This document shows positions 18,201 through 62,000 of a DNA stretch of 64,000 nt, in pieces. Each line of letters begins with the position of its first letter. Position 1 is the stretch's first letter. The position numbers were made by a program, and so were the translations under genes. The stretch is from Echinarachnius parma (Eukaryota; Echinodermata; Echinoidea; Clypeasteroida; Echinarachniidae), in NCBI GenBank assembly GCA_037951105.1, contig JBAMJV010008008.1:1-64000 (forward strand), written 5' to 3'. A model generated the notes under the pieces. The model searched no databases. It was not told where the DNA came from and saw nothing but the letters and a program-made list of their open reading frames with translations.

Positions 18201-21200
18201 TTTAGATTTTTTAGTGAAATATGTTCATTATAACATTCATGCATAAAAATGAAGATTTTAAAAATAAATGCCATGTTTTGTTATTGACAGGATACTAACT
18301 TAGGCAACAGTTCCCTGAGAAACCTGTACATGAGGAAGACCCCCACTAGCACCCCCAAGAGTCACAGTGCAGCCTCCACACCTGTGGTCACGCCCCTTGC
18401 CACGCCCCTGGCCACTCCCCTAGCCACGCCCATGCAGTCAGACAGTGAGGATGACAGAGAGAGTTTGGAGATGTCAAAAGTCTGTCTGGATCTTAGAGGG
18501 GTTGGTGATGATGAGGAGGAAGATGGTGGTGGAAGGGATGCTGGAAACAAGCGGTTTCCAAGGCAACCAAAGCTCCTGATGCCACGCGTAGACAGCAAAG
18601 GGGTATATATGTTACTTTTTTTCTCAGCACCTATCATATTTTCATGTTGATTGTCATATCTCATGTCTTGAAGGTGTCTGTACAGCTTTTATTAATCAAC
18701 ATTTGACATTTTACCCAAGTGATACATTGAATGCATTTCATTTACTATCAGAATTGTTCGTATTCTTAAAGAAATTTAACCATTTTCAAAGTATTATTTG
18801 ATATTGCTTTGCTCGCCAGGACCTTGCAAAAGATAATAATGCATCTGAAAACAGTTCTGCAAATGCAAGGACTCCCATGAAGGATTCAAAAGCAGTGAGA
18901 CGGAAGTCATCTGCCAGAGATGATGAGGCAAAAGGAGCCAGTGTCAAGAAGAAACCACGCTCCTCGGAATCAGAAGGGTCTAGGAGAGGCAAGAAGAAAG
19001 GTAAATATTTAACCCTCTCATTAATTACCAAACCAGAGATAAACAATGGATGTATCACTTTGTTAGGAACGTTAACGGGACAGTCCGCCTTTTACAAATC
19101 ATCTGAAAAGTTTCCAGTACCTAGATGGGGATAAATATGACACCCATGTGAAATTTTAAATTGAACAACGCTGTAATTTAGATTCTATGAAGGAAAAACT
19201 ACCAAGAAAAAATAGCAAAGATATCCTCTCTTCAAAGTACTACATTTCGGTTACTTGATATGTTTAGCTGATTCATTGTCAGAATACAACTGTCATGAAC
19301 TTATTCACGAGAAACCTGTGTATAGATACACAAAATAACAATCTCAAATGAAAGAAAGAAGGAATAGATCTTAAGTTTGAAGATATTTCAGTACTTGATT
19401 GATTCTTCGGTCATTAAGTTGCACACTGCAAACGCAGGCAGTTTGGCGTGCACTCAAAGTCTGTGGTACACTAAACATGTCATGCAGTATAACCAGGGAA
19501 GTGGAAGTCTGTGAAATGAAATTACAGACGCTGGATTTTGATATACACGCAATATGCGGACGTGAGGGAAGTACAAAATAATGGCGTCACAAGACGGGGT
19601 TTAAAAACTCCTTTATTTTTATAGGTAGAAGTCGTCTTATAGAATGGAATCTTCACAGATAGTCTGGAATTTTTTATTCTGATTTATGCGTGCTAAGTTT
19701 CGAAACCATTAACCAGTTGATAACAACAAATATATCGGTCTGTTAGACGTATAGCCCTGTATAGCCTGACTAGGCAAAGTAATGGAGAGCTTAGCTTAAA
19801 CTCCCCGCCGTGACCCCATCGTAAACCAGACCATTCAACATGCATAACTAGTACAGCATATGAATGAAAGTTGAATTTTATTTATAATTGAAAGTACGCA
19901 TTTCAAGATATCACTGAAGTAAGAAAGTAATTACTGAAACATATATGGAATTTGACAATTTATCAAAAAGTATCTTTGTTTAGCTATTGCCATCTATTGA
20001 AATGACTCGTTTTGCTTGTGCGATGCTCTGTGATATTTCATATATACAAAAATTATGATTAATTTTGTTCTTTTTCAGTTGCCGAACCACAGCGATCAAC
20101 TAGCACGTTTGCAGACATTGGGGGAAATGACAGAACTCTGGAGGTATGTTGACCAGCAAAACACTTCAAACAGTTATGAGGGTTACATATTTTTGTCTTT
20201 AAAGGGGACCACCAGGCAAAGAACAACACATTATTATATGTTTTGGTACCGTTTTGTGATATCAAATAGATACCCAACATTTTGCAAAGGGTTGTTAATT
20301 CATAAACAAAGCAATTAATTTTCACCACTTACGGAACCACTGCTATTTCCTGGTTCCATACGGGCCAACCATTTGCGAGTGCGCCAATGCTATTCACGCG
20401 CACGTTTGTAGACCATAGATTCCCGGACGATTTGTTCGCTCGGCATACACATCGCAATTCACCGCACACATCGCAGTCTTCGCAATTCAGACCGCATGAA
20501 CGCATGCTTTAGAATGGTGATGCGTTTCCAATTTTTTTTCTTTTTTTCTGGAAACATATTTTTGTGAACTTGTTGATGGAATGGAATACTAAAGATGTTA
20601 CCTTTCTTTAATAAGAATATTATTTTTGGGTGGTGGTACCCTTTAAACATGTATATTTCTAAAGTAATAATTATGTATGCTCCCTTGAGAGTTGAGAAAG
20701 TGCACAAGGTAGTTATGCATGTTTTTAATATACTGAACTGTACCATTGGAACACAGAAAATAATTGGTGCCAGACTTGAGTGCAGACTCCTTTTATTATT
20801 TGATTTCATCAGAGTACTATAAACATTGCGTAATCAGTCAATTGTAGAATGATATAAAACATTAAAGAAATATCTTCTTACCTCTTTATTTTTCAGAGAA
20901 CATTTAGAGCATTTGCATTCATTTCCATGCAAAATGTGTAATTGTAAAATGAACATTTGATAAATACACAGACACTATGAAAGGTATGTATTTCATATCC
21001 TATTGACCCTTAATTTTATAGCAGAGCAGTTCTCTGCAATAATTTCTTCATAACTTTTCATCAACATAACAGAATTGTAATTGTTGTCTTGCTTCGTAGG
21101 AGGTGTGCAGGATGATGGTCCACATGAAGCACCCTGAGGTGTATCAGCAGCTGGGGGTATCCCCTCCAAGGGGAGTTCTGCTCCATGGACCCCTGGATGT

Positions 21201-59000: not shown

Positions 59001-62000
59001 ATTCTGAAAATGATTCTTCTGACAAAGTTTCATGAGAGACGATACCTTTCTTCCTTTAGATGCAAGATGGTCCAACATTCTTCCTGGGTCAGGGAACTTG
59101 TGAGTATCCCAAGTCAAGTACCTAGGGAGAAAGGTAAATAGAAGAATGTCTTCAAGATAGTGTCCTTCTTATGAAGGCATCTTCAGGCTCGGGAAAACAT
59201 TTCATAAACCACAAGGATGCCATGTACACCAAGTTAGTGACATTTGAAAGTTCACAGTGATAACAAAATTCAATTGAAGCAAGAAAAAGCAATCTCTTTG
59301 TACAAACTGTTTCCTATGGTAGCATTTAAATGGTCTTACAGACAGGTGGCCTTCTGTACAAGTGGTCCCTGAAAAAGGTATGATAGTATTCTCTGATGTC
59401 TCTTGAGTCAATAAAGAAGCAACATTTTAAACTTTTGATCACAATGCAAATATTTAAAGAAACTTTTTGCTCAATTCTAAATATATCATCTGTTGCATGT
59501 GTAGTAGAGCCAATCTGAATCGTCATATTGAAAGTCAATGTATCCCCTAAGTCAGAAGGAAAAACCCAAGGGTTTTAGACAGTCAAGATTTCTTTATTCC
59601 TGCCAGGCAAATTAGAGAGACTTTTTACTTAATTGGAATGCAATATAATTTTCATTTAATACTTTTACTTTGTATAACCTATCTTTTGTTGACATGTAAT
59701 TTTGAATGAAATGCAGAATAATAAAACAATAAATACAAAATAATAATTAAGTTGTTAGACAAACCTCTTTCCATCTGTGTGTTCGATATCCAGCCAGATG
59801 ACATCACAAGGTATATCGTGCTCATCAAAGTTTAGATCGACTCTGAAATTATACGAGAAGAAAACATTTGCCATTACTAGGGTAGACTAGTACTGATTTA
59901 ATGAAATATATTTAAAACTTGCACATAGCAAAAATTATCAAGTACAATAATACATTCATTTAGCATTGTTTTCAACTGGTGTAGGTCATTATGTTTCTTC
60001 AACCACGGAAAGGACAAGGATTGTATACTGAGAGGTATGATATTCTGCAAATTATATATATCTAAGATCATCAAGCATGTGAGTCTGTGTGTACTTCACA
60101 CCATGCGCAACGTGTTTGCAAATTGGCACCACGCATAGATCATTTACTTAAAATTTAAAAAATTTGATCCAATTTCCAAACAAAAGATGGTTTTCGCACT
60201 TACTGTTTGACATCTTCTTCATCATTATAATTCCAGCGGCACTGGTGGTACGCTATGGAGAACAGCTGGAAATTTGAAATGATAAGAAATATAAATGTGT
60301 TGAAATCAATTCAAAGCAAATTACATACTCAATTAGCTCCGTTCATTTACAGTGCAAGATACATGTACTACAAGATGACATCCATCGGAAAAGGAGCGAA
60401 GAGGAGTAAAACTTAAGATATTTGCAATGGTTCTCTCATAACCAATAAATACTTTACTGTGAAAAAAAGTGATCATTTACCTAGAGGAAGGTATGGTCTT
60501 CCAGTGATATTACTGTAATGAGAGAGCACATCAATGGGAGGACCAACATCCACTCTGCTATTTCTAACAACTACAAGTATCAAATAGTTTATCAATGATA
60601 ACTATAATAATTATTTCTCGCCGAAAAGTATTGATTTTTTTACAGGAGGGATGTATGGTTTTTCAGTAAGAGTAGTGTACTGTGAGTGCACATCCATGGA
60701 TGAAGGACAAAAAAAAAACATTTCATCAAATCACCATTTCTCACTAACAAATTAAATGGTTTTTTCACTGATTAATACATGTGCTAGCTGTAAAGTTCCA
60801 AGTAATTTACCAGAGGGAGGTATGGTTTTCCAGTAAGAATGGTGTACTTTGAGAGCACATCCATCGAAGAAGGACCTACAAGAGCTTGACATATTTCTCA
60901 ATTCAACAATTTCTCACTAAAAAAACTTAAATTAACCAAAACTGAATGACTTACCGGAGGGAGGTATGGTTTTCCGGTAAGAGTAGTGTACTGTGAGAGC
61001 ACATCCATGGGTGAAGTTCCAAATAGAAGGAAGGTATCAATGATGCCCGACTCGGAGTACCAATGCGTGTCCACCTGGGGTACGTCACTCTCTCCCTTCA
61101 CGTAGTCTAGCATCCGCCCAAACATGGACTGCAAATTAAAAAGTTAGAGACATGTTCAGAACATGTAAAGTAAAGTGAACAATTTATAAGCAGAGAAAGC
61201 ACATCCATCTTCGTGTCTAGCATCCCACTCATAGATGGACTGAAAAAACTCTAGCTAGAAAGCCCTTGTGCTGGTTGTTTGTCCCTGAAACTCATTTCCA
61301 ATGTCTTTGATGGCCAAAGCAAAAGCAAATAGCTCAGAAATATTTTTGGCACATTCAGAGATCTAACAGTCTTGCATGACTATGAAGATAGATCAAAGTA
61401 GGGAGGTCATTGAATGTACATGTAGTTGTGATTGTAACCAAATGACTTTAACGCAATCTTAAAATGATTAACAAGTTCAACAATCAGTGAACTAGACAAA
61501 ATCAATTGTTCCCACAGCATATGTAATGGAACCATTTGAAAATCATGCTTCCTATTTCTTTAATTTACAACTATCTATGTCAAGCAATAATGCAGAAAGT
61601 ATTGCAAAAGGCTGGCATTGGTTTTTCTTACCCTGTCTGCCGTGTTTGAAGATATGTCAATCCATGTCTCGGCTGCGTTGAGCCAGAATAAACCCACTGT
61701 TCTCTCCTTGCTGCAATATTCATATTAGAAAGGAGAGTACCATACAATACAAAAACACTGAGTAAATTCTACAAGATATAAAAATTACTTTTAAGCAAAT
61801 TCTACATGGTATAAAAACGGCACTTTAAGTTGATGCATGTGACTACTGTAACATAGTACGAATATTTCAAATCATGGCCTAATTTCTGATAAAATATTGG
61901 AACTAGTACATGATTCTGCATTTGATTAACATCTCCAATGCAATAATCCTATTATTTTTTTCATGACTGACTATGTTTATTACCTACGTACACCTAATGT

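What the first reader, a model, noticed from the sequence alone, without database searches (positions are those of the whole stretch)
21100..61128. Recurrent splice-junction shadow exons in NVL and GANAB
Eight exons in two unrelated genes carry truncated tandem copies of themselves: NVL exons 9 (two copies), 12 (one), 15 (one) and 19 (two), and GANAB window exons 5 (three), 10 (five), 18 (one) and 19 (two). Each copy usually covers one splice junction plus about 70-110 nt of exon and 50-100 nt of intron; units are about 150-270 bp. The copies are decayed and truncated, while the functional exon keeps every motif. Repetition across unrelated exons suggests a recurrent local process (replication slippage, foldback-driven duplication or repair-linked copying) acting near splice sites in this genome, or selection for decoy splice sites. 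I know of no named class for this.
Basis: partly seen in the sequence, partly recalled or inferred. Interest (0 to 1): 0.9.

Follow-up and report, generated by a model that had tools for sequence, protein, structure and literature searches.

The report
Sea-urchin copies of exon edges
Two sea-urchin genes carry decayed tandem copies of the edges of eight of their exons; such copies are already known from amphioxus as "mirages", and here they look like ordinary local DNA duplications that happened to overlap exons rather than a process aimed at splice sites.

Summary
The interpretation needs three corrections. (1) The class has a name: tandem duplications of exon-intron boundaries are called "mirages" in amphioxus. 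(2) This window is not amphioxus but an echinoid, which extends mirages to another phylum; no echinoderm case showed in the listings of my paper searches. (3) Targeting of splice junctions is not clearly supported. Local repeats cover 10.6% of exon and 12.7% of intron bases; 7 of 13 local-duplication loci overlap a junction, against 5.7 expected (P 0.25). A looser distance test is nominally positive (within 30 bp: 10 of 13 against 6.6, P 0.02), so a weak bias remains possible. Copies differ from their exons at all codon positions, and their splice sites are about as degraded as neutral decay predicts, so decoy selection is not supported. Best reading: frequent neutral tandem duplication of short segments, recognised where it clips an exon. 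The genome-wide test could not be run because that tool did not complete.

The parts
21737..21871 (+). NVL exon 9, functional
   Evidence: open spliced frame, AG|..|GT; NVL match
21079..21200 (+). NVL exon 9 copy 1: acceptor plus 102 nt of exon
   Evidence: 92% over 123 nt; exon part 97/101
21364..21472 (+). NVL exon 9 copy 2: acceptor plus 102 nt of exon
   Evidence: 96% over 110 nt
23493..23631 (+). NVL exon 12, functional, GC donor
23236..23410 (+). NVL exon 12 copy: about 80 nt intron, acceptor, about 98 nt exon, directly head to tail with the functional unit (period 176-180)
26843..26965 (+). NVL exon 15, functional
27112..27221 (+). NVL exon 15 copy: 3' exon part plus donor, downstream
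   Evidence: exonic match (it stops 29 bp short of the donor); donor reached in the alignments
30549..30648 (+). NVL exon 19, functional
30056..30240 (+). NVL exon 19 copy 1: intron, acceptor, about 60 nt exon (limits approximate)
30245..30430 (+). NVL exon 19 copy 2 (limits approximate)
60955..61128 (-). GANAB exon 5, functional
60799..60870 (-). GANAB exon 5 copy 1: 3' exon end plus donor
60634..60705 (-). GANAB exon 5 copy 2
   Evidence: 91% over 66 nt for 60640-60705
60465..60541 (-). GANAB exon 5 copy 3
   Evidence: 79% over 75 nt for 60465-60538
60364..60388 (-). possible fourth GANAB exon 5 copy, very decayed
   Evidence: shuffle P 0.009, single uncorrected test
55959..56182 (-). GANAB exon 10, functional
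56396..56545 (-). GANAB exon 10 copy F (acceptor plus 98 nt exon)
   Evidence: 91% over 153 nt
56606..56661 (-). GANAB exon 10 copy, second half of the copy split by a LINE fragment
57388..57487 (-). GANAB exon 10 copy, first half of the split copy (acceptor plus 49 nt)
57548..57691 (-). GANAB exon 10 copy C
57752..57904 (-). GANAB exon 10 copy B
57968..58071 (-). GANAB exon 10 copy A, most decayed
   Evidence: 77% over 105 nt
56662..57387 (-). LINE fragment inserted into one GANAB exon 10 copy; reverse-transcriptase-like ORF at 56838-57281
   Evidence: ORF; the CR1-like label is recalled, not searched
43229..43338 (-). GANAB exon 19, functional
41771..41926 (-). GANAB exon 19 copy: 68 nt exon plus donor, part of a 1.37-kb repeat
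   Evidence: 85% over 159 nt; spacing
47432..47562 (-). GANAB exon 19 copy: acceptor plus 20 nt exon, at one end of the copy of intron 18
   Evidence: 86% over 132 nt
44209..44322 (-). GANAB exon 18, functional
49047..49183 (-). GANAB exon 18 copy: 49 nt exon plus donor; lies upstream of exon 18, at the other end of the copy of intron 18
   Evidence: 74% over 138 nt
54503..54604 (-). GANAB exon 12, functional (ninth exon, not in the finding)
54730..54960 (-). two degraded copies of the acceptor-side intron of GANAB exon 12; both have lost the AG

Best explanation
These are mirage-type tandem duplications in a sea-urchin genome. Short segments (copies lie mostly about 150-370 bp apart, a few 1-5 kb) are duplicated head to tail at places close to random with respect to exons. 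The likely cause is fill-in of broken DNA ends with single-stranded overhangs, or replication slippage; some arrays then grow by slippage or unequal exchange. A unit that clips an exon usually spans one splice junction simply because exons are about as long as units. The result is tolerated because one complete exon with both splice sites remains and the truncated copy has no strong partner site, so it is not recognised as an exon. The copy then decays neutrally while the functional exon is conserved. Shown here: the tandem copies, the intact parent exons, decay at all codon positions, and no clear excess at junctions. Inferred: the break-repair step, exon definition as the reason for tolerance, and the order of events.
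For: 0 of 44 exons had an inverted copy. In 16 of 17 copies the copy lies on the side of the junction it carries, as tandem duplication requires. 7 of 13 local-duplication loci overlap a junction, against 5.67 (sd 1.44) after shifting the exon map (P 0.25). With at least 15 nt of exon: 6 of 14 against 5.2 (P 0.41) and 7 of 13 against 5.6 (P 0.27), and without the repeat filter 6 of 15 against 5.8 (P 0.59) and 7 of 14 against 6.2 (P 0.41). Local repeats cover 10.6% of exon and 12.7% of intron bases. Random units of 100-205 bp that touch an exon span exactly one junction in 65-77% of placements, and 54% at 270 bp. Differences between copy and parent exon fall on codon positions 1, 2, 3 at 30/409, 40/418, 56/415. 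In 16 copies tested none has a partner site at or above the lower quartile of functional sites (0 of 10 with a donor of 7.9, 0 of 6 with an acceptor of 7.8). Tandem duplication as a product of repair of breaks with protruding ends: PMC5730883 (abstract and passages).
Against: The distance test is nominally positive: within 15, 30, 50 bp of a junction 9, 10, 10 of 13 loci against 6.2, 6.6, 7.0 (P 0.056, 0.020, 0.036). The NVL15 match stops 29 bp short of its donor in that test although the alignment reaches it; counted as overlapping it would make 8 of 13, for which I computed no P. Local repeats cover introns more than the rest of the window outside the genes (12.7% against 3.2%), so placement is not random over the window as a whole, though the repeat filter removes much of the intergenic part. 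GT/AG is kept in 17 of 17 copies (joint probability 0.015 from random exon dinucleotides); the GANAB12 copies lost it in 2 of 2, and I did not recompute the figure with them. The partner-site result is weak, because the best donor or acceptor near copies is like that of background intron (median 5.0). The GANAB18 copy breaks the side rule and needs a larger duplication with later loss. No breakpoint was resolved to the base. With 13 loci a modest bias would be missed (my judgement, no power calculation). Exon conservation makes boundary copies easier to detect (exon part better preserved than intron part in 13 of 17), which favours an apparent junction association.
Confidence: 0.72

Rival explanations
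1. A duplication process is targeted to splice junctions, for instance through R-loops, nascent-RNA structure or repair-linked copying near exon edges.
For: Within 30 bp of a junction: 10 of 13 loci against 6.6 expected, P 0.02. Two intron-only arrays begin 13-14 bp from a donor (62926-63227 and 43982-44195). The amphioxus cases in the passages I read all span boundaries, but I saw no control there.
Against: Overlap counts match chance. Intron within 100 bp of a junction is less covered by local repeats than deeper intron (8.2% against 14.0%).
Confidence: 0.14
2. The copies are selected decoys or regulatory pseudo-exons that tune splicing.
For: GT/AG kept in 17 of 17 copies. Four copy acceptors score above the functional one (NVL9 copy 1, NVL12 copy, GANAB10 copies B and C).
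Against: Mean neutral quantile of site strength 0.57 over 19 copies and 0.59 over 10 arrays, with divergences set by hand. GANAB12 copies lost the AG. No partner site of typical strength in 16 copies tested. Copies differ at all codon positions.
Confidence: 0.06
3. Old whole-exon duplications (alternative exons) that were later truncated.
For: The large copy at 47432-49183 includes ends of two exons with intron 18 between them, and fits a duplication of about 4.1 kb followed by loss of the exons inside it.
Against: No whole-exon copy appeared for any of the 44 exons (within 6 kb). Copies at 92-96% identity are already truncated at the exon.
Confidence: 0.05
4. Assembly artefact: collapsed or misjoined haplotypes.
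For: Only one assembled sequence was seen; one tandem pair elsewhere in the window is 99.96% identical.
Against: Exon-copy matches are 74-96% identical (17 rows), with indels, and the GANAB10 array is interrupted by a LINE fragment.
Confidence: 0.03

Closest known systems
Amphioxus 'mirage' minisatellites (globins BflGb6 and BflGb9, Adh3, troponin C; similar duplications in PGBD5)
   Same: Head-to-tail duplications of one exon-intron boundary, at either end of the exon; units of 150-160 bp in the globins; many but not all copies keep AG/GT; the PGBD5 ones are imperfect (abstract and passages of PMC3087553, passage of PMC3902484).
   Different: Here in an echinoid, in two housekeeping genes, at 8 of 44 exons (plus GANAB12). 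Normal splicing and haplotype length variation, reported in amphioxus, could not be tested. I add a chance control; the passages I read do not report one.
Tandem genomic duplication as a source of new introns (AGGT model)
   Same: Local tandem duplication that copies splice-site sequence (passages of PMC3443670).
   Different: No new intron was seen here; the copies lie inside existing introns.
Break-repair tandem duplications (cNHEJ or polymerase theta at protruding ends)
   Same: Direct duplication of a local segment (abstract and passages of PMC5730883).
   Different: Shown in mouse embryonic stem cells with Cas9 breaks; here the step is inferred.

Membership tests
mirage (boundary-spanning tandem duplication) | tandem direct repeats that include an intron-exon boundary | tested here: met
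   17 copies at 8 exons, all direct; 3 of the 17 (GANAB18, GANAB19) belong to repeats 1.4-5.3 kb apart
mirage (boundary-spanning tandem duplication) | either exon end can be duplicated | tested here: met
   acceptor copies at NVL9, 12, 19 and GANAB10, 19; donor copies at NVL15 and GANAB5, 18, 19
mirage (boundary-spanning tandem duplication) | many copies keep AG/GT | tested here: met
   17 of 17; GANAB12 0 of 2
mirage (boundary-spanning tandem duplication) | regular splicing is not disturbed | not testable with these tools
   no RNA data; the spliced frames are open
mirage (boundary-spanning tandem duplication) | copy number varies between haplotypes or somatically | not testable with these tools
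   one sequence only
mirage (boundary-spanning tandem duplication) | occurs in cephalochordates (all cases in the passages read) | tested here: not met
   the window is an echinoid; this is a reported range, not a structural criterion
duplicated alternative exon (mutually exclusive exons) | a full extra exon with both splice sites and an open frame | tested here: not met
   no whole-exon copy for any of 44 exons within 6 kb; partner sites weak in 16 copies tested
new intron by tandem genomic duplication | the duplication creates an intron absent from orthologues | not tested
   intron positions were not compared with relatives

The most novel reading that the evidence does not exclude
Local tandem duplication in echinoid genes is frequent enough that about one exon in five carries boundary copies (8 of 44 here), with a mild real bias to junctions, so that mirages are a shared feature of several invertebrate deuterostomes and a standing supply of raw material for new splice sites and introns.
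Probability: 0.15. Interest if true: 0.6.

Novelty: new member of a known kind. Interest (0 to 1): 0.36.

Why it matters
If the count holds genome-wide, boundary duplications are not an amphioxus oddity but a by-product of a high local duplication rate. That would give a neutral baseline for claims about decoy exons, and a large natural set of duplicated splice sites for testing how the spliceosome ignores a second, sometimes stronger, acceptor close to the real one and how tandem duplications can seed introns.

Tried and rejected
Amphioxus origin was my first guess from the resemblance to mirages. It was rejected by the protein searches. A targeted process was tested with three controls and is not clearly supported; the nominally positive distance test is given above. 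Selection on copy splice sites was tested in two ways (dinucleotide retention, site strength); the first is suggestive for the 17 copies, but the GANAB12 copies go the other way and the figure was not recomputed with them. A fourth GANAB5 copy is only weakly supported. The Rfam search at gathering thresholds gave one match, tRNA-like, at 38926-39002, outside the arrays. Paper searches on this subject (15 papers listed of 15; 19 of 19; 15 of 83; 5 of 5; 6 of 6) showed mirages only for amphioxus in their titles and abstract starts; two searches were on intron gain and on short insertions. The original Adh3 paper was not listed and is known to me only through PMC3087553 and PMC3902484 and by recall. 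Passages of PMC3188502 on local duplications in fly regulatory DNA were read and not used as evidence. No collection of animal genomes was at hand for a comparison with another urchin's DNA.
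Full report
What is there. The window holds an NVL gene on the + strand that looks complete (23 exons, 15176-34519) and most of GANAB on the - strand (21 exons, 63372-40947). Both spliced frames are open, and the junctions are GT-AG except a GC donor at NVL exon 12. The gene identities rest on the best matches.

Which organism. The spliced NVL protein is closest to the sea urchins Diadema setosum and Lytechinus pictus (69% and 68%). 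On 663 gap-free columns of an alignment of the window protein with 12 proteins picked from the 120 listed, it is 80% identical to each of the two, they are 81% identical to each other, a brittle star is at 70% and amphioxus at 63%. GANAB is 84% identical to Strongylocentrotus purpuratus and to Diadema antillarum, then 67% to a brittle star and 62% to amphioxus. The window is therefore an echinoid, about equally far from the two sampled lineages. The species is not known to me.

The observation. There are 17 copies, all in direct orientation; 0 of 44 exons had an inverted copy. Each copy carries one junction and 20-102 nt of exon. In 16 of 17 the copy is on the side of its junction: acceptor copies upstream, donor copies downstream. 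This is what tandem duplication of a segment across one junction must give if one intact exon is to remain. The exception, the copy of the GANAB exon 18 donor at 49047-49183, is part of a larger repeat: stretches of 47432-49183 match 43319-44257, that is the end of exon 18, intron 18 and the start of exon 19. A tandem duplication of about 4.1 kb with later loss of the exons inside it would explain this; the loss is inferred. A ninth exon, GANAB12, has two degraded copies of its acceptor region with about 8 nt of exon.

Arrays have a history. The GANAB10 array has five copies, about 200-215 bp apart where uninterrupted. One copy is cut in two by a LINE fragment (56662-57387), and four copies share differences from the functional exon, which suggests growth among copies after a first duplication (read by eye from the alignment). 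Exon-part identities over the 17 copies range from 77% to 100%.

Is it more than chance that junctions are hit? I ran three controls. First, 44 exons and 1000 length-matched intron segments were searched in the same way (E<=1e-3). A direct copy within 1 kb was found for 6 of 44 exons (13.6%) and 126 of 1000 intron segments (12.6%), and within 6 kb for 8 of 44 (18%) and 300 of 1000 (30%); in two intergenic sets of 600 the 1-kb figure was 8.3% and 4.2%. Many intron segments may lie in the same arrays or in dispersed repeats, so the second control counts loci in the region 15001-63600, which includes the 6.4-kb gap between the genes (2 of the 13 loci lie there). After filtering of dispersed repeats, 7 of 13 loci share at least 15 nt with an exon, against 5.6 when the exon map is shifted (P 0.27); with a 1-kb limit, 6 of 14 against 5.2 (P 0.41); unfiltered, 7 of 14 against 6.2 and 6 of 15 against 5.8. 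Third, by distance: 7 of 13 loci overlap a junction against 5.67 (P 0.25), but 9, 10 and 10 of 13 lie within 15, 30 and 50 bp against 6.2, 6.6 and 7.0 (P 0.056, 0.020, 0.036). In that test the NVL15 match stops 29 bp short of its donor, although the alignment reaches it; counted in, the overlap would be 8 of 13, for which no P was computed. By bases, local repeats cover 10.6% of exon (557 of 5238), 12.7% of intron (4625 of 36532), 8.2% of intron within 100 bp of a junction, 14.0% of deeper intron, and 3.2% of the window outside the genes. Taken together there is no clear targeting of junctions; a weak bias is not excluded with 13 loci, and genes may be richer in local duplications than the TE-dense stretches between them. 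A detection effect points the same way as the claim: in 13 of 17 copies the exon part is better preserved than the intron part, because the parent exon is conserved, so boundary copies stay recognisable for longer.

Why one junction each. A random unit of 100-205 bp that touches an exon in these genes spans exactly one junction in 65-77% of placements, and in 54% at 270 bp. The product of the fractions for the seven small-unit cases, with unit lengths that I estimated, is about 0.09. No special rule is needed, though purifying selection against whole-exon and within-exon duplications may add to it.

Do the copies do anything? Differences between copy and exon fall at codon positions 1, 2 and 3 at 30/409, 40/418 and 56/415, which is what a neutral copy and a constrained exon give. 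Splice-site strength in the copies sits at the mean 0.57 quantile of neutral simulations over 19 copies, and 0.59 over 10 arrays, with divergences that I set by hand. GT/AG is kept in 17 of 17 copies, with a joint probability of 0.015 from random exon dinucleotides; in GANAB12 it is lost in 2 of 2, and I did not recompute the figure with these. Four copy acceptors score higher than the functional acceptor. In 16 copies tested (10 acceptor, 6 donor; GANAB19's acceptor copy and the GANAB12 copies were not tested) none has a partner site of typical strength within 280 nt, but the best partner sites are like those of background intron. This fits exon definition as the reason why the copies are ignored; it is an inference, since no RNA data were available.

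What it is called. [quoted passage not shown] A passage of PMC3902484 cites Adh and troponin C and describes similar, imperfect duplications in PGBD5. The listings (15 of 83 papers listed), 45 and 52 pointed to no echinoderm case; the library holds open-access papers only and I read titles and abstract starts, so this is not proof of absence.

Mechanism. The best-supported reading is frequent neutral tandem duplication of short segments. Repair of breaks with protruding ends gives such duplications in mouse embryonic stem cells (abstract and passages of PMC5730883), and tandem duplication of splice-site sequence is a proposed and partly demonstrated route to new introns (passages of PMC3443670). 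Which repair route acts here is not shown.

Limits. There was no second individual, no second urchin and no RNA.

Noticed in passing
4974-10518: Head-to-tail pair of a 2.76-kb element, 99.96% identical, with an 834-aa open frame on the - strand that looks like a Penelope-like element (reverse transcriptase followed by a GIY-YIG-type end); the label is recalled from the sequence, not from a search.
   Followed up: partly
57286-57390 and 58198-58302: A perfect 105-bp inverted repeat: one arm is at the 5' end of the LINE fragment that splits a GANAB10 copy, the other is in the intron beyond the array. It may be a templated 5' junction of the insertion.
   Followed up: no
62926-63227 and 43982-44195: Intron-only tandem arrays (153-bp and 76-bp periods) that begin 13-14 bp from the donors of GANAB exons 1 and 18.
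   Followed up: partly
42345-42581, 43734-43950, 46452-46604, 48816-49039: A sequence found four times at E<=1e-3, once in each of GANAB introns 16 to 19; it marks repeated local duplication or a local transposon cluster.
   Followed up: no
28756-29130, 33579-33966, 47572-47960, 54109-54462: A dispersed element of about 370 bp in four introns, with a further diverged copy at 29223-29539 beside the first.
   Followed up: no
23632-23633: NVL exon 12, which has a boundary copy upstream, uses a GC donor.
   Followed up: no
38926-39002: tRNA-like match (36.1 bits) in a sequence with diverged copies elsewhere in the window; probably a tRNA-derived SINE.
   Followed up: no
12583-12909: Open frame on the - strand resembling the N-terminal part of elongation factor 1-gamma, upstream of NVL; the label is recalled.
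   Followed up: no
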